Assembly (NCBI GenBank): GCA_017795025.1
Contig: CP051243.1
Span: 2,628,897 to 2,692,896, forward strand
Source: Flavobacteriales bacterium
GTDB lineage: Bacteria > Bacteroidota > Bacteroidia > Flavobacteriales > Schleiferiaceae
DNA: 64,000 nt
Direction: 5' to 3'
Under the pieces are notes generated by a model, which saw only the letters and a program-made list of their open reading frames with translations, did not search any database and was not told the origin of the DNA. This document shows, piece after piece, positions 1 through 9,642 of this stretch (its first letter is position 1; every line of letters begins with the position of its first letter). Made by a program: the position numbers and the translations under genes.

Positions 1-921
1 GTTGCCCGCGCAATAAATTTCTTTAAAAACACCCCAATCGTTGGCGACCGAAATAGCAGCATCTGCTCCCAAGCACGAAAACTGCGGATACGCCGCTAGA
101 GCTGCCTGTGCGTGCCCCGGCAGTTCAATTTCCGGAATCACCTTTATGTGTCGATCTTCTGCGTAAGCCACAATTTCGCGAAGCTCCTTTTTGCTGTAAT
201 ATCCGCCGTAGCGACTGCCGTCCTTTTCTATTCGCCAAGAACCTATTTCATTAAGTTTTGGGAAAGCCTCACTTTCCAGTCGCCAGGCCTGATCTTCGGT
301 AAGGTGTAAATGCAAAACATTCATCCGATAAAGCGCCAGAAGATCAATCTGCTTTTTTACCGCTTCCACACTGAAAAAGTGGCGACATACGTCCAACAAT
401 AAACCGCGATGTTCAAATCGTGGGGCATCAACTATTTCAAACGGTGGAAGGGACCAATGCTGGGTCTTGGATTCTTCAAAAGCGGGCGCTAAAATTTGGC
501 GAAGGCTCTGAATGGCCCGCATTAAGCCCTCTCCGGTAGAAGCCGATAAGCTAAGCTGATGTTCGTTAGACCGAATAGTATAGCCTTCCTTAGCCTCGAT
601 TTGGGAATTATGCCTCAAGTATATTCCGCGCAATGGCCTTTCGGCTGAGGATAAAACTAACTTTGGTTCTTGGTCAATACCCGAGGCCAATAAACATTTT
701 AAATAAACGGCCTCACTACTAAAGCCTTCATCGTAAAAAATGGGTAAGCGCTGTTCCCAGTGGAAGTCTTTGCCTTTTAGGTAGTTAAGAGACTGAACCT
801 GAGGAATGAGCTTAAAGGAAATGTTTTCGCTTTCAGCCGGGTCCTTTAAGAGCGCGGTCTCACTGGCATTATCTGCCGCACTATAAAGGCTTATCGCTAA
901 GAGTAAAAGGTATTTTTTCAT
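1..921 (-). CDS. Beta-N-acetylhexosaminidase, GH20 family (3' part missing)
   Basis: Exported glycosidase expected to remove terminal N-acetylhexosamine from chitin- or peptidoglycan-derived sugars. The frame is open from an ATG at 921 to the window edge, giving 307 residues. Residues 1-17 look like a signal peptide. A GH20 N-terminal (GH20b-like) domain spans about 25-150. The catalytic barrel then starts with HRGLLLDVCRHF (171-182), HLTEDQAWRLE (206-216) and VIPEIELPGHAQAAL (261-275), all classic GH20 blocks. The catalytic Asp-Glu pair lies beyond the window, so activity cannot be judged. It is the last visible gene of the minus-strand cluster, 121 bp after the racemase gene. Confidence 0.9.
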   Translation of the reverse strand, partial: MKKYLLLLAISLYSAADNASETALLKDPAESENISFKLIPQVQSLNYLKGKDFHWEQRLPIFYDEGFSSEAVYLKCLLASGIDQEPKLVLSSAERPLRGIYLRHNSQIEAKEGYTIRSNEHQLSLSASTGEGLMRAIQSLRQILAPAFEESKTQHWSLPPFEIVDAPRFEHRGLLLDVCRHFFSVEAVKKQIDLLALYRMNVLHLHLTEDQAWRLESEAFPKLNEIGSWRIEKDGSRYGGYYSKKELREIVAYAEDRHIKVIPEIELPGHAQAALAAYPQFSCLGADAAISVANDWGVFKEIYCAGN

Positions 922-1042
922 CTACCGAGCTTATGCCCAAAGTTGATGATACTTTTTTAATCATTTAATGCCCCCGGCCTCTTTTCTAGCTTTAGCTAAG
1001 GTACAAGCAAGGAGGGTAAAAGGCGGCTCGGATAGCTTTGGG

Positions 1043-2122
1043 CTAATCGATTACCCGCTTCTCGATATAATCAGAATTAAAGAGCGTTAAGGCCCCCATA
1101 TACTTAAGATGGAAGGGAATAAAGTCGCCCACCTTGTAGCCTCTTTCGTTATCGTGAATGTCGATTACTAACATATCGCTACTGGCGCCCACAAACTCAA
1201 TCGCTTGATCCTTAAAGGGAATTAGGTAGTCACTGGAGATGTCGAGACTGCCTAAGTCGAGGATAGCCCGGTGGGTTGTTTTTCCATATAAGCTCTCGTC
1301 GATCTCAAAAGTTTCCCCTTGGGGGTTCGCTTCCAGCTCTCCAATGGGCAACATTGGTTTTTCGTTAATCTCAATTATCTGTGCGTAGAGGGTAATTACA
1401 TCTTGCTCCATGCCCTCCATCGGTCCATGGTGTACGATATCCGTTCCAAAGTAGAGGGTTTCCCCTACTCTAAAATGATTAATCCCCATGGGCAATTGAT
1501 GGGTTTGCAAAAGGGGAATAACCACCGAGGTTCCGCCCGTTACCCAGGGAATTTTTCGTCCAAACTTGGCTTCCACCAGCTGTTTGTATAACGATAACTG
1601 AATCAGCTTATCGGTACTTGGCATAACGCCGTGCAGGCAATTAAGGTTAGCGCCGATTCCGGTAACGGTGATATTGGGAAGTTTAAATACGGAGCCATAA
1701 AAATCAATGAGCTCCTCCCCCATAATTCCTTCCCGCAAATCCCCCAATTCAATCATGATTATGATTTTATGGACTTTGCCTTGTTTACCAGCTTCTTCAC
1801 TAATCGCTTGAATGGTGTCGAACTCAGAGTTAAAGCTAGCGTCGGCATATTTCACTAAGTCTGGAATGCTTTCGCCCGCCGGGGGTTTAATGTAAACGGT
1901 TTGTACATCTTCGGGAGCGTTTTCCTTAACCACTTTTAGGTTGCTAATCCGCGCATCACATATTTCTTTAATGCCCAGATCAATAACCTCTTGTACCAGA
2001 AGTTCCTGGCCACAGAGAAGTTTGGTCACAATCGACCAGTCAATTTTATGCTGCTCGAATAAGTTTTTTAAGAACCGGTAATTGTGTCGCAATTTTCCGC
2101 GACTAAAAGTTACATAGGCCAT
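1043..2122 (-). CDS. Alanine/ornithine racemase family PLP enzyme
   Basis: PLP-dependent fold-type III enzyme related to clostridial ornithine racemase (Orr) rather than to classical Alr. The 359 residues carry the N-terminal barrel with the probable PLP lysine in VTKLLCG (about K34) and the family block IELGDLREG in mid-barrel. The substrate is not readable from sequence; basic amino acids and alanine are both known for the family. It starts 2 bp after the alr stop, so the two racemases are almost certainly co-transcribed. A second racemase of different subfamily beside alr suggests a second D-amino acid is interconverted by this operon. Confidence 0.8.
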   Translation of the reverse strand: MAYVTFSRGKLRHNYRFLKNLFEQHKIDWSIVTKLLCGQELLVQEVIDLGIKEICDARISNLKVVKENAPEDVQTVYIKPPAGESIPDLVKYADASFNSEFDTIQAISEEAGKQGKVHKIIIMIELGDLREGIMGEELIDFYGSVFKLPNITVTGIGANLNCLHGVMPSTDKLIQLSLYKQLVEAKFGRKIPWVTGGTSVVIPLLQTHQLPMGINHFRVGETLYFGTDIVHHGPMEGMEQDVITLYAQIIEINEKPMLPIGELEANPQGETFEIDESLYGKTTHRAILDLGSLDISSDYLIPFKDQAIEFVGASSDMLVIDIHDNERGYKVGDFIPFHLKYMGALTLFNSDYIEKRVID

Positions 2123-2124
2123 AT

Positions 2125-3276
2125 TTATTCGGTTACGATTCTTGGTATATCCAAGGGTAATCGTGTTAGTAATTCGTAATTCATTTGATCGCTGTACTCG
2201 CTAAAGGAGCTTACGCTGATTTCTTGATCGTCTTGAGTACCTATTAAAATAACCTCATCTCCGGTTTCAATGTTTGCAAGGTGGCTCACGTCCAACATCA
2301 TAACATTCATATTAACCACGCCAATTACCCCTACTCTTAGTCCGCGAATGAGGGCTCGACCAGAGTTGCTTAAGCTGCGACTAAAACCATGGGAGTAGCC
2401 TACTGGTACTGCAGCCACGGTCATATCCTGCGTGGCTAAATAAGAGGTGCCATAGCCTACATACTCTCCTTTTTTTACTTGCTTAACATTCATCACTTGG
2501 CTTTTCCAGCTTATTACCCTTTCCAGTGGGTCGTGGTCGGAGCCGTCCTTGGTTTGGGTATGAATGAAGGTTTCCATATTGGGCCAAAAGCCATACTGTA
2601 AGATGCCCACCCGAACTAAGTCAAAGTGGGTTTTAGGAAAGCGTAAAACCGCAGCACTGCAAGCCGCGTGCACTTGGGTGGCCGGTAGGCCTTCTTTTTT
2701 AAAGTACGCACGGCCTTTTCTAAAACGTTTAATTTGGTCTTTTACCCGAAGATGGTTCGCGATACTTTCGGCACCTGCAAAATGAGTACATAGTCCCTGG
2801 AAGTCTAGGGCATCGGCATTCTGACGTAAATAGGCAATGGTTTTTGTCCAGTTTTCTGGCGCAAAGCCTGTGCGGTTCATTCCGGTTTCGAGCTCAATAT
2901 GCACCCGCGCTTTGCGCTTTAGCTTACGAGCAACCTTAACCGCTTGTTCTAAACGATTATGATCAAAAACAAAGAAGCTTACCCGATTATCAATAACCCA
3001 TTCTAGTTGTTCCTCGCTAATCATACCCATAATTAGTACGTCTACAGAACGGTCTAAGGCTTTTAATACGGCCGCTGCCTCATGGGCGTCAAACACCGAA
3101 AAGTGATCGGCCCCAAGTTCCACAGCCAAAGGGACAAAAGGGTCTATTCCGTGGCCATAGGCATTACCCTTTACCACGTGGGATAAACGGGCTCCCGGCT
3201 GCAAATGCTTTCTGATGTAATCAAAGTTATTCGCTAAAGCACTGCGGCTTAATTCAATTCGGCTCGTGTTATCCAT
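2125..3276 (-). CDS. alr: Alanine racemase, stand-alone, with motif substitutions
   Basis: Interconverts L- and D-alanine (or a related amino acid) with PLP. The 383 residues show the PLP lysine block VVKGNAYGHG (K36; usually VKANAYGHG), TGMNRTGF (131-138), VRVGILQYG (221-229, with the Arg that contacts the pyridine nitrogen) and GYGTSY with the catalytic Tyr (Y275). The usual C-M-D-Q block reads NMNV (322-325), so the conserved Asp is Asn. In many Bacteroidota the housekeeping Alr is fused to MurF. This separate copy, in a catabolic-looking operon, may be an accessory racemase. Its start overlaps the end of the upstream amidohydrolase gene by 8 bp. Confidence 0.85.
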   Translation of the reverse strand: MDNTSRIELSRSALANNFDYIRKHLQPGARLSHVVKGNAYGHGIDPFVPLAVELGADHFSVFDAHEAAAVLKALDRSVDVLIMGMISEEQLEWVIDNRVSFFVFDHNRLEQAVKVARKLKRKARVHIELETGMNRTGFAPENWTKTIAYLRQNADALDFQGLCTHFAGAESIANHLRVKDQIKRFRKGRAYFKKEGLPATQVHAACSAAVLRFPKTHFDLVRVGILQYGFWPNMETFIHTQTKDGSDHDPLERVISWKSQVMNVKQVKKGEYVGYGTSYLATQDMTVAAVPVGYSHGFSRSLSNSGRALIRGLRVGVIGVVNMNVMMLDVSHLANIETGDEVILIGTQDDQEISVSSFSEYSDQMNYELLTRLPLDIPRIVTE

Positions 3277-4393
3277 GTTTATGATCCGCTATCAATTGCA
3301 TAAAAATCAAAGCGCCCTTCTCAATTAGGGCATCTGGGAAATCATATTCAGGATGGTGTAAAACCGGGCAATCTTCCCCCGAGCCCAAACCGAACATTAA
3401 ACCCTTTTTATCTTTTATGAGTAAACCAAAGTCTTCGCCCCAAGAGTAGGGGTAATCTAATTCTTGATAGTTGATTCCCAGCTTTTGGCAAACGGACTTG
3501 AGGTGTTCCTTGCTATCCGCATTATTGATTACCGGCCAAAACTCTTCGAAGCGCTCAAATTTTAAATCAACACCGGCTGCCTTGGCGCCTTTTTCGGCTT
3601 TCGCCTGAAGGGCTTTCACCTGATCATTCAGCAGCTCACCATCCCAGGCGCGGCTGGTAAAATGTAAACCGCCAATTCCGGGACTAATTCCATAGTTTTT
3701 GGCCCCTAAATGGCTATATACCGGGGTGCATAAAAAGTAATTTGCTTGCTTGGGGTTTACCTCTTCCTGGCTAAGGGCCCATTGCACTAATTCGGCAATC
3801 TGCCCTGCGGGGTTCTTTCCTTCCCAAGGATGAGCGGCATGTGTTTCGAGTCCTTGGTATTCGAAGGATAAGCTACAAACGCCAGCATTAAAGTTTTCGG
3901 TTTTGCAAAGCACTGTGCCCAAGGGCGCGCCGGGAATATTATGCAGGGCATAAGCATATTGATAGGAGTACTTCGCGAAATTCTCATCAGCTAAAACCTT
4001 AGCTGCGCCCTGACCATTTTCCTCCGAGGGTTGAAAAAGCAAGTGTACTTTACCCCTCTCGGGAGTGTGTTCTTTTAGGAGCTGGGCACATCGATACAAA
4101 ATCGCGGTATGACCATCATGACCACATTTATGCCCTTGGCCCTCAATAGTGGAGCGATAGCTGAGCTCATTGGGTTCGGCTATTGGTAAGGCATCGATAT
4201 CGGCTCGAATTAAGATCGCGTCCCCATCGGCTTTACCTTCGAAAGTCGCTACCAAGCCGGTTTCCCCTACGGTTTCCAAAGCATCTGGCTTTAGTTCTGC
4301 TATAAGGCGGTGAAGTAATTTGTGGGTTTCAAACTCCTTACCGGACAGCTCGGGGTAGCTGTGCAAGCGATGCCTTAGTTCTTGGGCGTCCAT
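3269..4393 (-). CDS. M20 family amidohydrolase (N-acyl-amino acid deacylase type)
   Basis: Metallo-amidohydrolase of the M20D/IAA-amino acid hydrolase type, expected to release free amino acids from N-acyl or small peptide conjugates. The 374 residues contain RADIDALPI (63-71) and the metal block GHKCGHDGHTA (87-97), then the acidic QPSEENGQGA and ETHAAHPW segments. There is no signal peptide, so it should be cytoplasmic. Its stop overlaps the alr start by 8 bp, and its ATG overlaps the stop of the GNAT gene by 1 bp, which indicates translational coupling. In this context it probably supplies amino acids to the two downstream racemases; the true substrate is unknown. Confidence 0.85.
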   Translation of the reverse strand: MDAQELRHRLHSYPELSGKEFETHKLLHRLIAELKPDALETVGETGLVATFEGKADGDAILIRADIDALPIAEPNELSYRSTIEGQGHKCGHDGHTAILYRCAQLLKEHTPERGKVHLLFQPSEENGQGAAKVLADENFAKYSYQYAYALHNIPGAPLGTVLCKTENFNAGVCSLSFEYQGLETHAAHPWEGKNPAGQIAELVQWALSQEEVNPKQANYFLCTPVYSHLGAKNYGISPGIGGLHFTSRAWDGELLNDQVKALQAKAEKGAKAAGVDLKFERFEEFWPVINNADSKEHLKSVCQKLGINYQELDYPYSWGEDFGLLIKDKKGLMFGLGSGEDCPVLHHPEYDFPDALIEKGALIFMQLIADHKHG

Positions 4394-4830
4394 TATTTTT
4401 GGTAACGCATTTCTAAGTACTTACTGGTAAAGCCAAGCTTTGAGTATAAGTGGCGCGCTGGATTATCGGGCTCCACATGCAAAGCTACCGCCCCATCAGC
4501 ATGCTCCAAAGCCATTTGCATGAGGCTTTTACCAAGACCTTGCCCACGGGTTTGAGCATCTACAGCAATGTATACCAAGATATTCTCGGGAATGTAACCG
4601 CTCATTCCGGTATTATTCACAATGGTGGCGCCCATAATTTCCTGCTCATCATTGTAGGCCATGGCCACAAAGCCACCCTTATCTGGGTTAAAGACATAAT
4701 CGAGGCAAGCCAGAATCTGGTCTTTAGGATCGCCATATTGTTCCAAGTGTTTAAACAGGAAGTTGGCAATGCGCTCTTCGTTAAAGTAATCGTGAGGCCC
4801 CGAAGCGCCTTCAATGAGTAGAAAGTTCAT
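4393..4830 (-). CDS. GNAT family N-acetyltransferase
   Basis: Small acetyl-CoA-dependent acetyltransferase of 145 residues. The acetyl-CoA pyrophosphate loop is visible as TRGQGLGKSLM (about 93-103), preceded by the beta4 strand ILVYIAVD and followed by the usual C-terminal LYSKLGF. The acceptor is unknown. It lies between the symporter and the amidohydrolase, with a 20-bp overlap to the former and a 1-bp overlap to the latter. It could therefore acylate or modify the same small molecules that the amidohydrolase hydrolyses, but that is inference from position only. Confidence 0.85.
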   Translation of the reverse strand: MNFLLIEGASGPHDYFNEERIANFLFKHLEQYGDPKDQILACLDYVFNPDKGGFVAMAYNDEQEIMGATIVNNTGMSGYIPENILVYIAVDAQTRGQGLGKSLMQMALEHADGAVALHVEPDNPARHLYSKLGFTSKYLEMRYQK

Positions 4831-6289
4831 TTGTTTGTGTTTTAGTAATACTTAAATATGTGATAAGGGATGCACTAATCCCAAATAAATTAGGGTCTAA
4901 ACCTAGTGGCATAGCAATCCAGCCTTTCATTTTAGCTATCTCCAGACTTAAGGTTAAACCTCCTCCTATTAAAATAGACCACCATGCCGCTTTCGCAGAT
5001 CGGGTTTTAAAGAATAGGGCCGCCAGTATGGGGATAAATAAACCACTAACCATAAAGCTGTAAGAGAGTAACATCAAATCGAGCACATTGCTCATTTGGG
5101 TGGCCAGTAACAGAGCAAGTCCGCCAATAGCAAAGGTTACCCATTGTGAATAAGACAGCAGTTTTTCCTCTGATACCTTGGTGTAGCGACCAATGATATC
5201 GCTTAAAACATTGCCGGAGGCCGCCATGAGGCAAGAGTCGGCCGTGGACATGATTGCGGAAAAATAGGCCGACATCATTAAACCCATCAGACCCACCGGT
5301 AACACGCTGCGCAATAGTAAGGGTAAGCCCATCTCGGCATCAATACTTCCGAGTTCGGTATAACCGATACTCTCGAACATTCCTTGTTGTAAGGCTACGC
5401 GCGCAAACAAGCCTAATAGTACTCCCATAAAGGCCAAAATTGGCCATTCGAAAATACCGGCTAAAAACCAGGCTTTACGAGCGGTAGCTTCATCTCGGCT
5501 CGCGTAAATACGTTGGTAGAGGGTCATGCCAATAAACCAAATTGGAATTATAGTTAAGGCCCAATTAAAGACCTGCACCCAGGAGAGATTAAAAATGTCG
5601 AAAAAGGAAGGGTCGAGGGTTTCCCGTATACCATCATAACCGCCAACGGCAAAGTAAGCCATGGGGATACCGATAAAAATAAGCCCGGCCATTAATAAAA
5701 TCCACTGCACCGTATCGGTATAGATTACTGCTTTTAAACCGCCAAAAACAGTGTAAACAACCGCCGTGATTCCCATGATCCAAACGGCCGTAAGGAGGTT
5801 CAAATCGGGAAAGGTAGCCGTGGCCAATTTTGCCCCTGCCAGTATTTGAGCTCCGGTAAACCCGATGTAACCAATTGCGCTAACTAAAGCGGCTAAAAAG
5901 GCCACTTTACTATTAAAGAGGTGGTAAAAAATTTCGGGGAAGGTAAATAGCTTGTGCCTGCGCAGCAGGCCGAAAATTTTAGGAATCAAGAAATAGGCTG
6001 AAAGCCACGCTCCTATGAGGCCCGTAAATAACATCCAGCTCCCAGCGATGCCTATGGCGAAACCTAAACCGCCTAAACCGATGCTAAATCCGCCCCCTAC
6101 ATCTGTAGCGACTACACTCAATCCAATGTGTCCGCTACTCATTCCGCGACCGCCTACATAATAATCATCGATATCTTTGTTGCGACGCATAAAGTAAAAA
6201 CCCACGGCGAGCATCGCAACTAAATAAAAAATGAATATGGCTAAGTCTACAGGATTCGGCAAAACCAGCACAAAGGTGCAAAAAATCAT
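4811..6289 (-). CDS. Sodium:solute symporter family (SSS) transporter
   Basis: Inner-membrane Na+-coupled uptake carrier of the SSS family, about 492 residues with 12-13 predicted membrane helices. Family features include the N-terminal helix followed by DIDDYYVGGRGMSS, a VVATDVGGGFSIGLGG stretch in helix 2 and SAYFSAIMSTADSCLMAASG in helix 9. The substrate cannot be read from sequence. I chose the ATG at 6289 because a longer upstream extension would be basic and would run far into the divergent gene; a GTG at 6271 is also possible. It is the promoter-proximal gene of the minus-strand cluster and probably imports its substrate. Confidence 0.85.
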   Translation of the reverse strand: MIFCTFVLVLPNPVDLAIFIFYLVAMLAVGFYFMRRNKDIDDYYVGGRGMSSGHIGLSVVATDVGGGFSIGLGGLGFAIGIAGSWMLFTGLIGAWLSAYFLIPKIFGLLRRHKLFTFPEIFYHLFNSKVAFLAALVSAIGYIGFTGAQILAGAKLATATFPDLNLLTAVWIMGITAVVYTVFGGLKAVIYTDTVQWILLMAGLIFIGIPMAYFAVGGYDGIRETLDPSFFDIFNLSWVQVFNWALTIIPIWFIGMTLYQRIYASRDEATARKAWFLAGIFEWPILAFMGVLLGLFARVALQQGMFESIGYTELGSIDAEMGLPLLLRSVLPVGLMGLMMSAYFSAIMSTADSCLMAASGNVLSDIIGRYTKVSEEKLLSYSQWVTFAIGGLALLLATQMSNVLDLMLLSYSFMVSGLFIPILAALFFKTRSAKAAWWSILIGGGLTLSLEIAKMKGWIAMPLGLDPNLFGISASLITYLSITKTQTNELSTH

Positions 6290-7199
6290 ACGAACCGCCC
6301 TTTCGTTCTTACTCCTACTTTTTGTTTTAAGCGCCTGTAAAAGCAAGGTTCCCGTGCAGCGTACGGCCTATGTAGACGCCTATTTGAGAGACAGTATACC
6401 TTACAGCTTAGCGCTACAGGAAGAGCCCTCAGATCGACTACTCATTTTTTTAGCCCCAGCCTTAGATACCGTTCAATTTGAGGAAACCGGGCTTTATCAA
6501 AAAATATTCGCAGCGGGCTATAACATCCTATGTATCTACCAGCCTCCGGCTTATGGCTCGTTTTATTACAGCAGAAAGGCGATGGAGTTTAAAGGTCAGC
6601 AAATTCAAAATGCGCAAAACCTTATTAGCCATCTGCGCAAGCGAAAGCAAATACCCAAAGCCGAACACACCGTACTCATGGGAATTGATCAAGGGGCCTA
6701 TATGAACCCCTTGTTAATGGCCAATAACCATATTGATACGGCCATTTACATCAATGCCAATCCCTTTAGTATGTACATGTCTTTACAAAGGATTGCGGAT
6801 GGGCGAATGGAGTGGAATGAAAAGCGCCAGGACTTTATGAAGCGAAAATTTGGTATTGACTCTTTTCCCACCTTTAAGCAACGCGTGGCCGAAGTAGAAA
6901 GCACCGGCTCCGAAAATTACAGCTTAGGAAGTTTTAGCAATATGTATTGGATGAGTTATCATGCCAACTATATGCTTGACGAATATCGACAAACTCCCGG
7001 ACACAATTATTGGGTCTTTTTTAAGGATTACCCCTTGTTTAAAAACAGCGATTTGGAATACCTGAAACTGTTAGATAAAACACGCAATGAGGGTAGCGGG
7101 AACTATAATGTGCTTGACAACTATCAGGGTTTTAGCCCCGAAAACTGGGAGGCCCTGGAAGCGGCAATCTTACCATATTTTGTTAAGGAGCAATCTTAG
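6276..7199 (+). CDS. Lipoprotein with alpha/beta-hydrolase-like domain
   Basis: Predicted outer- or inner-membrane lipoprotein of unknown function. The GTG at 6276 gives a clean lipoprotein signal with hydrophobic core and lipobox LSAC. The ATG at 6231 would add a polar, basic 15-residue extension and overlap the divergent symporter further. The body resembles an alpha/beta hydrolase: LLIFLAPALDT strand, then VLMGIDQGA where a nucleophile elbow (G-x-S-x-G) would stand, but with Asp instead of Ser. Either it uses Asp chemistry or it is a non-catalytic relative. It overlaps the convergent rpiB by 17 bp. Confidence 0.65.
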   Translation: MQKIIRTALSFLLLLFVLSACKSKVPVQRTAYVDAYLRDSIPYSLALQEEPSDRLLIFLAPALDTVQFEETGLYQKIFAAGYNILCIYQPPAYGSFYYSRKAMEFKGQQIQNAQNLISHLRKRKQIPKAEHTVLMGIDQGAYMNPLLMANNHIDTAIYINANPFSMYMSLQRIADGRMEWNEKRQDFMKRKFGIDSFPTFKQRVAEVESTGSENYSLGSFSNMYWMSYHANYMLDEYRQTPGHNYWVFFKDYPLFKNSDLEYLKLLDKTRNEGSGNYNVLDNYQGFSPENWEALEAAILPYFVKEQS

Positions 7200-7611
7200 C
7201 TACCCGGCGTTGGTGGCGGCCCCCTTCAAAAGATTCCTTTAAGAAAGTATCTACAATAGCTAAACCTTCCTCTTCACTTATAAATCGTGCCGGCAGCGCT
7301 AAAATGTTGGCGTCATTGTGCTGACGTGCTAATGCGGCTAATTCTGTATTCCAGGCCAGGGCCGATCTAATATCAGCATACTTATTAACGGTCATATTAA
7401 TACCATTGCCACTTCCGCAAATAACAATACCCAAGTCCGCTTTTTTGCTAAGAAGCTCTTTAGCCACAGGATGACCAAAATCAGGATAGTCGACAGAGTC
7501 CTCGGCATCCGTTCCGAAGTTGTGTATTTCGTGACCTTCCCCCTCTAGTTTGTTAATAATCGCTTTTTTTAAAGCTACAGCAGCGTGATCTCCTCCAATG
7601 GCAATTTTCAT
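7183..7611 (-). CDS. rpiB: Ribose-5-phosphate isomerase B
   Basis: Isomerises ribose 5-phosphate and ribulose 5-phosphate in the non-oxidative pentose phosphate pathway; some family members act on allose or galactose phosphates. The 142-residue length is typical of RpiB/LacAB. Visible motifs are GGDHAAVALK (6-15, with the Asp-His pair) and ICGSGNGINM with the catalytic Cys. The C-terminus ends in a basic segment GRHQRRVAKI as in the family. It is a single gene whose 3' end overlaps the convergent lipoprotein gene by 17 bp. Confidence 0.92.
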   Translation of the reverse strand: MKIAIGGDHAAVALKKAIINKLEGEGHEIHNFGTDAEDSVDYPDFGHPVAKELLSKKADLGIVICGSGNGINMTVNKYADIRSALAWNTELAALARQHNDANILALPARFISEEEGLAIVDTFLKESFEGGRHQRRVAKIAP

Positions 7612-8064
7612 AAGTGAGTATTTTTTAATAAGTCTCTAATCGACTGGTTTTCAATTAAACGTTATTAACAAGCCGTAAAAAATCGCGGCAATGAATTGTT
7701 TATTACTTCTTAAAAAAAGCACTTGACTTTTTAGTCGAAATGTTTCTATAGGCAAATATCTGATTTTTGAGGGGCTAGTTATTGTTTTTTACCCCAACAA
7801 TTTTAACCGACCGATTGTAGTTTATTAACCGCGAAGCGGCCAAAAATTTTTTCGCTTTTTCCGGTGTTTAGAGATTTCAACAATTGTGAATAGCAAAAGC
7901 TTTGTGCTAGTAAATGAAGCATTTATACTGTAAGTTAGCTCTGATTTGTTGTGAATAATATTTAATAGATGAAAACTGCAAGCTACATCTCCCTTTTTTA
8001 TACCCCTTGTTCACAGCACATCATTAACATCATAGATTATATATTCTAAAAAGAACTACTATAT
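7612..8064. other. AT-rich intergenic region
   Basis: A 453-bp gap between divergent rpiB and the MORN-like gene. It is AT-rich with several A/T runs. I see no open frame, tRNA or recognised riboswitch. A short perfect hairpin (CCGC-gaa-GCGG, 7829-7839) is followed on the plus strand by an A5T6 stretch and could be a weak terminator-like or structural element. Promoters for both flanking genes must lie here, but I could not find a good TAnnTTTG element for either. Confidence 0.5.
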
Positions 8065-9642
8065 ATGTTATTAAGAACCTTGACTTTAATTCTGCTCTCG
8101 GGAATTCCCCTACTTTCGTTCTCGCAAGCTGCTGCAGATAGTCTGGTTCCAACCCAGTACTTCTACGAAAATGGTCAGGTTAGCAGTGAAGGGGGACTGC
8201 GAGATGGCAAGCCAGATGGGTATTGGAAAAGTTATTACCGCAGTGGCGTCCTTAAGGCCGAAGGTAATCGGAAAAATTTCAAATTAGACGGCCCTTGGAT
8301 ATTTTACAATCGGGAAGGTAAACCCAGTTCGGAGATTAACTATGCAGCTGGTCAAAAGCAGGGTCCCAGCAAAGTTTATGAGGATGGCGTTTTAGTGAAG
8401 ATTGATCTTTTCGAAGCTGATGAGCAGGTGGGGATAAGTACCTTCTTTTATCCTGACAGTACCGTTCAAAAAGAGGTGCCCTACGAAGGAGGTCAAAAGG
8501 AAGGCTTAGGTTTTGAATATTCTAAAGATGGCCGCATCATTACCCTCCTGTATTTTAAGAAGGGTAATCTTATCCGGAAGCAGAACATCAATCGTTTTGA
8601 TCAACAGGAGCAAAAACAAGGCTTATGGATGAGCTTTCATAAGAATGGGCAGAAGTCAAAAGAAGGGCCCTATCTAAATGATCTAAAAAATGGCTACTGG
8701 AAGTTCTACAAACCGGATGGTAACTTAATTCGAGTAGAAAAATGGGTTAATGGCGAACTACAAGAAGGGGCTACCGAAGTGGCTAAAGTGGAAGTTCGAC
8801 GAGAAATAGATCCCAAAACCGGAGCGGTAATTTTTAAGGGAGCCTATCAAAATGGGGAGGCAACTGGTGTACATCGGGAGTATAATACCGAGGGTGAAGT
8901 TATTGCCGCCAGGGTATACGATCAAGGGATTAAACTTTATGAAGGTATAATTGATGATCAAGGTCGCAAACAAGGTCCCTGGAAGGTTTTTTATAGAGAT
9001 GGTAATCTAAAAGCGGAGGGAAGCTATAAGAACGATTTAAAAGTAGGTCAGTGGCGCTACTATTTTCCCAATGGTCAAATTGAACAACAGGGAAACTATT
9101 TAGCAGGAAATCCAGATGGTTTTTGGTCGTGGTTTTATGCTGATGGTCAAACCTTAAGGGAAGAGGAATATGTGAATGGCCTAGAAGATGGAATGTCTAC
9201 CGAATACAATGATACCGGAGCCGTAATTGCAGAAGGATCCTACATCGATGGGATGAAAGAAGGCAACTGGACCTATACAATCAACGATCATAAAGAAACG
9301 GGTCCATACTTCGAAGGAAGGCGTAATGGACTTTGGAAGCACTATTATTTAAGTAATGATCAGCTAAGCTTTGAAGGTGCTTATGAGAACGGCTTGGAAA
9401 CGGGCTTTCATGTTTATTATTGGCCGAATGGTGAAGTAAAGCGAAGAGGTAATTATAGCGGGGGGAATCGCGATGGTCTATGGGAGTTTTTTGATCAGGA
9501 AGGAAAACGCATTGTAACCATTGAGTATGAAGACGGGGAAGAAGTTCGTTACAATGGTGAGAAAATAGATTACGGTAGGCGCTACGAAAAAGCTGTAGCT
9601 GAAGAAAGGGCTCAAAAAAACCTTTCGGAAGGGGAAGATTAG
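8065..9642 (+). CDS. Exported MORN-like/YwqK-type repeat protein
   Basis: Secreted or periplasmic repeat protein of 525 residues; molecular role unknown. Residues 1-20 form a signal peptide ending in LSFSQA. The rest is at least a dozen copies of a ~22-residue beta-hairpin unit with pattern NGxxxxEGxYxxGxxxGxWxxYY, as in MORN variants and the so-called YwqK-family antitoxin repeats. Such repeats usually form an elongated beta scaffold; the antitoxin label of the family does not apply here because there is no toxin gene nearby. A 27-bp gap separates it from the Nudix gene, so the two may be co-transcribed. Confidence 0.8.
   Translation: MLLRTLTLILLSGIPLLSFSQAAADSLVPTQYFYENGQVSSEGGLRDGKPDGYWKSYYRSGVLKAEGNRKNFKLDGPWIFYNREGKPSSEINYAAGQKQGPSKVYEDGVLVKIDLFEADEQVGISTFFYPDSTVQKEVPYEGGQKEGLGFEYSKDGRIITLLYFKKGNLIRKQNINRFDQQEQKQGLWMSFHKNGQKSKEGPYLNDLKNGYWKFYKPDGNLIRVEKWVNGELQEGATEVAKVEVRREIDPKTGAVIFKGAYQNGEATGVHREYNTEGEVIAARVYDQGIKLYEGIIDDQGRKQGPWKVFYRDGNLKAEGSYKNDLKVGQWRYYFPNGQIEQQGNYLAGNPDGFWSWFYADGQTLREEEYVNGLEDGMSTEYNDTGAVIAEGSYIDGMKEGNWTYTINDHKETGPYFEGRRNGLWKHYYLSNDQLSFEGAYENGLETGFHVYYWPNGEVKRRGNYSGGNRDGLWEFFDQEGKRIVTIEYEDGEEVRYNGEKIDYGRRYEKAVAEERAQKNLSEGED

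What the first reader, a model, noticed from the sequence alone, without database searches (positions are those of the whole stretch)
1..6289. Putative acyl-amino acid / D-amino acid / amino-sugar utilisation operon
Symporter, GNAT acetyltransferase, M20 amidohydrolase, Alr, Orr-type racemase and GH20 hexosaminidase are in one direction, mostly overlapping. Together they could import and deacylate conjugates, interconvert D/L amino acids and trim amino sugars, for example from peptidoglycan. I do not know a described system with this exact set.
Basis: inference. Interest (0 to 1): 0.5.

Follow-up and report, generated by a model that had tools for sequence, protein, structure and literature searches.

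The report
Conserved amino-acid racemase–acetyltransferase uptake operon
Five of the six genes form a widely conserved Bacteroidota operon that probably takes up an amino acid (perhaps of the lysine/ornithine kind) and changes its handedness and acyl groups, while the sixth, a sugar-cutting enzyme, belongs to a separate glycan cluster that only sits next door.

Summary
Symporter–GNAT–M20–Alr–Orr-like genes are packed head to tail on the minus strand. In 87 other genomes with a match to the Orr-like racemase (17 families, 44 genera), the same-strand run holds GNAT in 81, symporter in 61, M20 in 45, Alr in 41, an M23 metallopeptidase in 25, and GH20 in 3, all in the window's genus. GH20 follows a 121-bp gap and heads a GH20–CutC–GH2 cluster facing GH92–ROK.

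The Orr-like racemase lies outside the group holding true ornithine racemases. The Alr is a distinct paralogue beside a housekeeping MurF–Alr. In one family, ornithine and lysine aminotransferases lie divergently beside the operon in 13 and 9 of 21 loci.

Best reading: Na+-coupled import, deacylation and D/L interconversion of an amino acid, perhaps dibasic. Substrate and GNAT role are unproven, and an exporter follows the operon in two families, which leaves a biosynthetic reading open. The peptidoglycan/amino-sugar reading is not supported. Ten searches of one open-access library listed no description of this set (lists partly capped).

The parts
4811..6262 (-).
   Evidence: Pfam SSF E 1.5e-47; TIGR00813 163.4 bits, below its cutoff of 184; start from homologue N-termini; in the Orr-like run in 61 of 87 loci
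4393..4830 (-). GNAT-family N-acetyltransferase, 145 aa; most constant partner of the Orr-like racemase
   Evidence: Pfam; 81 of 87 loci, 16 of 17 families, 42 of 44 genera; AlphaFold model pLDDT 87.0 with a generic GNAT fold
3269..4393 (-). M20-family amidohydrolase (M20D type by my reading); metal/catalytic residues present
   Evidence: PF01546; TIGR01891 179.7 bits over its cutoff 153.75; best solved matches B. subtilis YxeP and a plant IAA-amino acid hydrolase; H88, C90, H92, E124, E125, H151, H346 at 97% or more in 52 rows, window included
2125..3276 (-). Alr-type PLP racemase, operon-specific paralogue of alanine racemase
   Evidence: TIGR00492 286 bits over cutoff 168; K36, R135, R222, Y275, Y294 in 50 of 50 operon rows; H296 in 48 of 50 against D in 30 of 30 housekeeping rows; separate group 100/100
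1043..2122 (-). Orr-like PLP racemase (PF01168 only), last gene of the operon
   Evidence: NF040742 311.9 bits, cutoff 480 not reached; Alr-type fold; group of 45 rows 100/100
922..1042 (.). 121-bp gap after the operon; no terminator-like or promoter-like match inside it
   Evidence: Sequence; consensus scan of 1-6500 found site numbers near those of shuffles
1..921 (-). 5' part of a GH20 hexosaminidase; NOT part of the operon, heads the GH20-CutC-GH2 cluster left of the window
   Evidence: PF00728; full gene and neighbours in L002; next to Orr-like only in the window's genus

Best explanation
It is a conserved amino-acid uptake and D/L-interconversion operon, perhaps for dibasic amino acids (ornithine/lysine class). 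Steps: (1) the SSS symporter imports the amino acid or its N-acyl form with Na+ (inferred from family). (2) The M20 enzyme hydrolyses the acyl or peptide bond and frees the amino acid (inferred; active-site residues are present). (3) The Orr-like racemase and the Alr paralogue interconvert D and L forms with PLP (inferred from fold and conserved lysine; substrate unproven). (4) The L form goes to ordinary catabolism, for example ornithine/lysine aminotransferase, which sits beside the operon in one family; in the window's genome the ornithine enzyme is elsewhere and no lysine enzyme was found. (5) The GNAT acetylates the amino acid, either to trap one enantiomer or to protect the side-chain amine (weakest step). 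GNAT + Orr-like, usually with SSS, is the core; M20 + Alr is an add-on pair that mostly comes and goes together.
For: Head-to-tail packing. In 87 loci from 17 families and 44 genera the Orr-like run holds GNAT in 81, SSS 61, M20 45, Alr 41, M23 25. M20 and Alr: both in 40, neither in 41, one alone in 6 of 87. The operon Alr is one side of a branch (25 operon rows against 30 housekeeping rows, 100/100), with catalytic residues intact but GYxD changed to GYxH. 39 of 41 operon genomes have a further Alr outside the operon (my count from the list), so it need not serve wall synthesis there. Ornithine aminotransferase lies divergently upstream in 13 of 21 loci of family f38 and lysine 6-aminotransferase beyond it in 9 of 21; five of these proteins were checked by NCBIfam and all pass the cutoffs of TIGR01885 or TIGR03251. 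The partner M23 matches the middle of PRK06148, an APH-M23-aminotransferase-III fusion.
Against: No substrate was tested. The aminotransferase neighbours occur in one family only (0 of the 66 other G-genome loci) and may be inherited neighbours. In the window's genome the ornithine aminotransferase is unlinked and near universal in the order (52 of 59 over cutoff), and no lysine aminotransferase passes its cutoff. GNAT-Orr-like without SSS, M20 or Alr stands in 16 of 87 loci, so the route above is not the whole story there. In all four loci of f57 and f70 an efflux adaptor and pump of the RND type follow Alr on the same strand after 67-178 bp, which points outwards rather than inwards. In G026 and G034 no Alr outside the operon is listed, so the operon copy may still make D-alanine. 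The GNAT fold search gives no substrate.
Confidence: 0.48

Rival explanations
1. Acetylation-driven deracemisation: the racemase equilibrates D and L, the GNAT acetylates one enantiomer, and M20 deacetylates it, so that net D-to-L conversion is pulled by acetyl-CoA. This would work like the DgcN-DgcA pathway for D-glutamate, built from unrelated enzymes.
For: GNAT is the most constant partner (81 of 87). Outside the GNAT-linked group, 4 of 9 inspected Orr-like loci have a DUF1611 gene just upstream, overlapping (L131, L133, L138, L128; Pfam-checked for L128 and L131). DUF1611 holds the N-acetyltransferase DgcN (NF041892; L128 copy 164.9 bits, cutoff 480). So the racemase family pairs with two unrelated, putative N-acetyltransferase families.
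Against: PLP racemases need a free alpha-amine (established chemistry), so the order of steps must differ from DgcN-DgcA. M20 is absent from 42 of 87 runs. Acetylating and deacetylating the same amino acid would be futile unless the racemase equilibrium has to be pulled.
Confidence: 0.2
2. Biosynthetic direction: the racemase makes a D-amino acid from L and the GNAT caps it as an N-acetyl-D-amino acid (solute, envelope or signal compound) that may be exported; the symporter recaptures it and M20-Alr recycles it.
For: GNAT-Orr-like without importer or hydrolase in 16 of 87 loci (f1, f3, f6, f21, f47, f50, f65). An RND adaptor and pump follow the operon on the same strand in 4 of 4 loci of f57 and f70, 67-178 bp after Alr, and an RND set lies downstream of the Orr-like gene in L055.
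Against: The RND link is seen in 5 same-strand loci of 98 stretches (a sixth, L091, is on the other strand). In f38 the recurrent neighbours are degradative aminotransferases. The most frequent further partner is an importer-type symporter (61 of 87).
Confidence: 0.17
3. One reading: a peptidoglycan / amino-sugar utilisation operon including GH20.
For: GH20 follows in the same direction in the window and in 4 further genus members; an M23-family protein travels with the operon in 25 of 87.
Against: GH20 is absent from 81 of 81 stretches outside the genus; it heads a GH20-CutC-GH2 cluster with convergent GH92 and ROK genes; the M23 protein matches a fusion-protein domain (149.5 bits) far better than murein hydrolases (at most 34.7).
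Confidence: 0.08
4. Second alanine racemase plus an unrelated scavenging operon: the Alr merely adds D/L-alanine capacity and the other genes act on unrelated small molecules.
For: In G026 and G034 no other Alr is listed; the Alr passes the alanine racemase cutoff.
Against: 39 of 41 operon genomes have another Alr; Alr and M20 are mostly present or absent together; the operon Alr carries a group-specific D-to-H change in GYxD.
Confidence: 0.06

Closest known systems
Ornithine racemase Orr of clostridial ornithine degradation (NF040742)
   Same: Same Ala_racemase_N family, aligned over its whole length (311.9 bits); Alr-type fold
   Different: Below the 480-bit cutoff; 37.6% identical to the Acetoanaerobium copy that lies beside a GlmL-type gene; on the other side of a 100/100 branch; linked to GNAT instead
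Alanine racemase Alr and broad-spectrum/lysine racemases (TIGR00492; 4dza, BsrV)
   Same: Operon Alr keeps the PLP lysine, arginines and tyrosines; over the Alr cutoff; a lysine racemase (4dza) and a broad specificity racemase (7agz, named BsrV) are among its solved matches
   Different: Own group with a long stem (1.93), GYxH instead of GYxD; the window genome keeps a separate MurF-Alr fusion
DgcN-DgcA D-glutamate pathway
   Same: Racemase plus N-acetyltransferase logic; some Orr-like relatives pair with DUF1611/DgcN-like genes. PMC12363236 calls dgcN the key gene of an irreversible racemisation pathway for acidic D-amino acids and their amides (passages seen)
   Different: No DUF1611 or enolase-type protein among the five. 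The step order of DgcN-DgcA is recalled; a paper I tried was not held
PRK06148-type APH-M23-class III aminotransferase fusion
   Same: M23 partner matches its positions 398-570 (149.5 bits); a Paracoccus copy shows the three domains
   Different: Here M23 is a stand-alone protein, and no kinase was seen in the operon

Membership tests
Ornithine racemase Orr (NF040742) | Score over the curated cutoff (480 bits) | tested here: not met
   311.9 bits; copies in GlmL context L134 549.6 and L127 505.7
Ornithine racemase Orr (NF040742) | Groups with Orr of the ornithine-degradation (GlmL) context | tested here: not met
   45 rows (44 with GNAT in the run; L055 without) separated 100/100 from 9 rows that hold the GlmL-linked, DUF1611-linked and three other copies; root by midpoint only
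Ornithine racemase Orr (NF040742) | Racemises ornithine | not testable with these tools
   Needs enzyme assay
Alanine racemase (TIGR00492) | Both Alr domains and score over cutoff | tested here: met
   286 bits against 168; PF01168 and PF00842
Alanine racemase (TIGR00492) | PLP lysine, catalytic tyrosine and active-site arginines conserved | tested here: met
   K36, R135, R222, Y275 in 50 of 50 operon rows; roles assigned from recalled Bacillus Alr numbering
Alanine racemase (TIGR00492) | GYxD motif as in housekeeping copies | tested here: not met
   D in 30 of 30 housekeeping, H in 48 of 50 operon rows
Alanine racemase (TIGR00492) | Racemises alanine | not testable with these tools
   Needs enzyme assay
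M20 amidohydrolase (TIGR01891) | Score over cutoff and metal/catalytic residues | tested here: met
   179.7 bits against 153.75; residues at 97% or more in 52 rows
GNAT acetyltransferase (PF00583) | Family score and fold | tested here: met
   46.7 bits against 20.7; GNAT fold, best Z 16.6, rmsd 1.9, 125 residues
Sodium:solute symporter (PF00474) | Score over gathering cutoff | tested here: met
   162.8 bits against 22.8; no NCBIfam model reached its cutoff
Peptidoglycan / amino-sugar utilisation operon | GH20 is a conserved member | tested here: not met
   Near Orr-like in 4 of 87 stretches, all in the window's genus
DgcN-DgcA pathway | DUF1611 acetyltransferase and enolase-type racemase present | tested here: not met
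   None of the five operon proteins matches DUF1611 or an enolase family in Pfam at E 0.001

The most novel reading that the evidence does not exclude
The GNAT-Orr-like pair (with M20 and Alr) is a second, independently built acetylation-coupled deracemisation system, for dibasic amino acids, spread over the window's phylum. The M23 protein beside it, like the middle domain of the APH-M23-aminotransferase fusion, is a cytosolic metallo-hydrolase of a lysine/ornithine/hydroxylysine-type conjugate rather than a wall hydrolase.
Probability: 0.17. Interest if true: 0.62.

Novelty: new variant of a known kind. Interest (0 to 1): 0.4.

Why it matters
If right, it gives a testable route by which many Bacteroidota handle D-amino acids. 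It singles out a racemase group that the databases place nearest ornithine racemase but that falls outside it, an alanine racemase paralogue that is probably not only for alanine, and a constant acetyltransferase partner with no assigned substrate. It also corrects an easy mis-grouping with a neighbouring glycan cluster.

Tried and rejected
GH20 as an operon member: rejected by the 121-bp gap, its own downstream cluster and genus-only occurrence. Orr proper: rejected by score and tree. Large proteins downstream of the operon in f36/f38 as APH–M23–aminotransferase fusions: rejected for the two checked (L065, L070), which are TonB-dependent receptors; a cluster of such large proteins lies in 14 of 98 stretches, and I did not test whether they belong. 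Extra downstream DNA fetched for this (L169–L174) was not analysed. Structure search with the GNAT gave no substrate clue; with the Orr-like model it gave Alr-fold relatives. A Bacteroidota-type promoter pattern (recalled) matched once in bases 1–9000, at 4509 on the minus strand inside the GNAT gene; sigma-70-like (9 found, 10.3 expected) and terminator-like sites (10 found, 8.4 expected) were near chance. Ornithine aminotransferase presence in whole genomes is uninformative because it is near universal.

Papers. PMC12838360 (outline; section 24 part 1): its RacX resembles an Asp/Glu racemase, not this family; the same text lists an ornithine racemase by KEGG in that Flavobacteriales strain, without further work in the part I read. 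PMC7857480 (passages): Alr-fold ornithine decarboxylases. PMC8154272 (passages): only references. PMC10845958 (passage): names the DgcN–DgcA pathway. PMC12363236: passages. Ten paper searches listed no description of this gene set; I saw titles and abstract openings, and the list was cut (20 of 21, 20 of 54, 10 of 42). Searches found nothing.

Rows and counts. The 100 loci include 13 named ones (L025–L037), of which L025, L026 and probably L032 duplicate L043, L049 and L100; one search dropped L025 and L026 (98 left); the 87 drop all 13 named loci and the window. Some absent genes are contig ends (L044, L104, L111). Gene maps come from mechanical ORFs and BLAST at E 1e-6 against window and own-genome proteins, so diverged neighbours can be missed. 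Alr tree: 25 of 50 operon rows. Orr tree: 47 of 96 rows plus 7 outside rows. The match list was capped, at weak scores. H37–H39 (Salmonella enterica plasmid records listed) were not fetched.
Full report
What is there. On the minus strand from about 6262 down to 1043 lie five genes, head to tail: an SSS symporter, a 145-aa GNAT, an M20 amidohydrolase, an Alr-type racemase and an Orr-like racemase. Neighbours overlap by 20, 1 and 8 bp, and the last two are 2 bp apart. A 121-bp gap follows, then GH20, which runs off the window. The genome is one 3.44-Mb contig, so I could read on: GH20 is 753 aa, CutC and GH2 follow tightly, and GH92, a ROK kinase and an M23 gene face them. That is a glycan-degradation set of its own; an N-glycan/mannoside role is my recall, not tested.

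Is the grouping real? I searched for the Orr-like protein in 59 genomes (the window's own and relatives; matches in 22) and in 392 genomes of the phylum (69 at E 1e-40 or better, own included), and fetched the surroundings of the matches. For 87 loci in 87 genomes (17 families, 44 genera, window excluded), the same-strand run with gaps under 300 bp holds GNAT in 81, SSS in 61, M20 in 45, Alr in 41, M23 in 25 and GH20 in 3. GH20 anywhere in the fetched stretch: 4 of 87, all in the window's genus. Of the six loci without GNAT, three are at contig ends (L044, L104, L111), one (L127) is an Orr beside a GlmL-type gene, one (L128) is paired with DUF1611, and one (L055) has no known partner. Two genus members lack the glycan block; there the Orr-like gene is followed by the convergent M23 gene (L046, 4-bp overlap; L047, 540 bp). 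So the glycan block was probably inserted between Orr-like and M23 in part of the genus (inference).

Modules. GNAT + Orr-like is the core, mostly with SSS. M20 and Alr behave as a pair: both in 40, neither in 41, one alone in 6 of 87. The commonest order is SSS–GNAT–Orr-like–M23–M20–Alr in f38 (11 of 21) and in f57 and f70 (2 of 2 each); GNAT–Orr-like–SSS, with or without M20–Alr, in f31 (8 of 11, plus one with M23 in front); SSS–GNAT–M20–Alr–Orr-like in the window's family f1 (9 of 19) and 4 of 12 in f3, where GNAT–Orr-like alone is commoner (7 of 12). Content kept under reshuffling argues for a shared function.

The Orr-like racemase. It aligns over its whole length to the ornithine racemase model but scores 312 of a required 480 bits. 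A tree of 54 rows puts 45 rows (44 with GNAT, plus L055) on one side of a 100/100 branch. On the other side are nine: the GlmL-linked Orr of Acetoanaerobium and of L127, four DUF1611-linked copies, and three others (Ilyobacter, Vescimonas, Roseateles). The AlphaFold model (pLDDT 83.6) has the Alr fold; alanine, serine and lysine racemases and D-threonine aldolase are among the best matches.

The Alr paralogue. The window genome has four Ala_racemase_N proteins: a MurF–Alr fusion, the operon Alr, the operon Orr-like protein and a 223-aa-frame protein that I take for YggS. Of 41 operon genomes examined, 15 have the full fusion over cutoff, and 39 have some Alr outside the operon; G026 and G034 show none (my count from its list). 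Operon Alr proteins form one side of a branch (25 rows against 30 housekeeping, 100/100, stem length 1.93). The catalytic set is kept, but GYxD is GYxH in 48 of 50 operon rows against D in 30 of 30 housekeeping ones. A change of substrate is the natural guess.

Clues to the substrate. In family f38, 13 of 21 loci have ornithine aminotransferase on the opposite strand upstream of the operon, and 9 of 21 have lysine 6-aminotransferase (some cut by the stretch end) beyond it. Three of the first and two of the second were checked by NCBIfam, and all pass. None of the other 66 G-genome loci shows either. Among the named loci, Pontibacter (L028) has an ArgD-like gene 7.7 kb away, with a semialdehyde dehydrogenase and argininosuccinate synthase beside it. 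In the window's genome the ornithine aminotransferase lies at 1,185,301, far away, and no lysine aminotransferase passes its cutoff. The M23 partner matches the middle of PRK06148 best (149.5 bits; next best model 39.7), and a Paracoccus member shows the kinase–M23–aminotransferase-III order. I recall, but could not read here, that relatives of that kinase and aminotransferase act on hydroxylysine and phosphoethanolamine (the paper is not held). The M23 protein keeps HxxxD and HxH. That it is cytosolic rests on my seeing no signal peptide. Together these point to lysine/ornithine-type amino acids, but loosely.

A clue the other way. In all four loci of f57 and f70, an RND-type adaptor and pump follow Alr on the same strand after 67–178 bp, and an RND pump lies downstream of the Orr-like gene in L055 (six of the proteins Pfam-checked). 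An exporter fits a product that leaves the cell, so a biosynthetic or efflux role cannot be set aside.

How it probably works. Import by the symporter, release by M20, handedness change by the two racemases, then ordinary L-amino acid catabolism; GNAT acetylates an intermediate. Shown: gene content, conservation, groups in trees, active-site residues. Inferred: every reaction. The pairing of Orr-like relatives with DUF1611 (DgcN-like) genes in 4 of 9 outside loci inspected (L127, L128, L131–L135, L137, L138) suggests that racemase plus N-acetyltransferase is a recurring logic. This is the base of the most novel reading.

Literature. One open-access library was searched ten times. Nothing listed describes this operon. 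Subscription papers are mostly not held and some lists were cut, so absence from print is not shown.

Noticed in passing
L002 5107-14818 (genome 2,620,106-2,629,817, left of the window): A glycan cluster: GH20, CutC and GH2 on the minus strand facing a stand-alone M23 gene, a ROK kinase and GH92 on the plus strand. CutC inside a glycoside hydrolase cluster is curious.
   Followed up: partly
window 6231-7199 (+), divergent to the symporter: Lipoprotein-like protein without a Pfam match, found beside RpiB in 11 related loci; start perhaps GTG at 6276 rather than ATG at 6231, leaving 13 bp between the divergent starts.
   Followed up: partly
L066, L069, L073, L085 (f57, f70), just after the operon; L055 downstream of the Orr-like gene: RND-type membrane-fusion protein and AcrB-type pump follow on the same strand; part of the same transcript or not is unknown.
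   Followed up: partly
L128 6311-9129: Orr-like gene between a DUF1611 (DgcN-like) gene and an M15 D-Ala-D-Ala dipeptidase-type gene: another racemase-acetyltransferase pairing, with a DD-peptidase.
   Followed up: no
L131 3787-6071, L133 3838-6089, L138 3772-6089: DUF1611 overlapping an Orr-like racemase on plasmids of Vibrio, Phaeobacter and Ruegeria.
   Followed up: partly
L109, L110 (family f6): A universal-stress-protein-like gene just upstream of GNAT-Orr-like and an AraC-type regulator just downstream (both Pfam-checked in L109).
   Followed up: no
G026 and G034: Only the operon-type Alr is listed in these two genomes, so it may have to make D-alanine there.
   Followed up: no
window 8065-9642 (+): 525-aa protein with MORN_2 repeats, kept near the operon in 12 related loci.
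   Followed up: no
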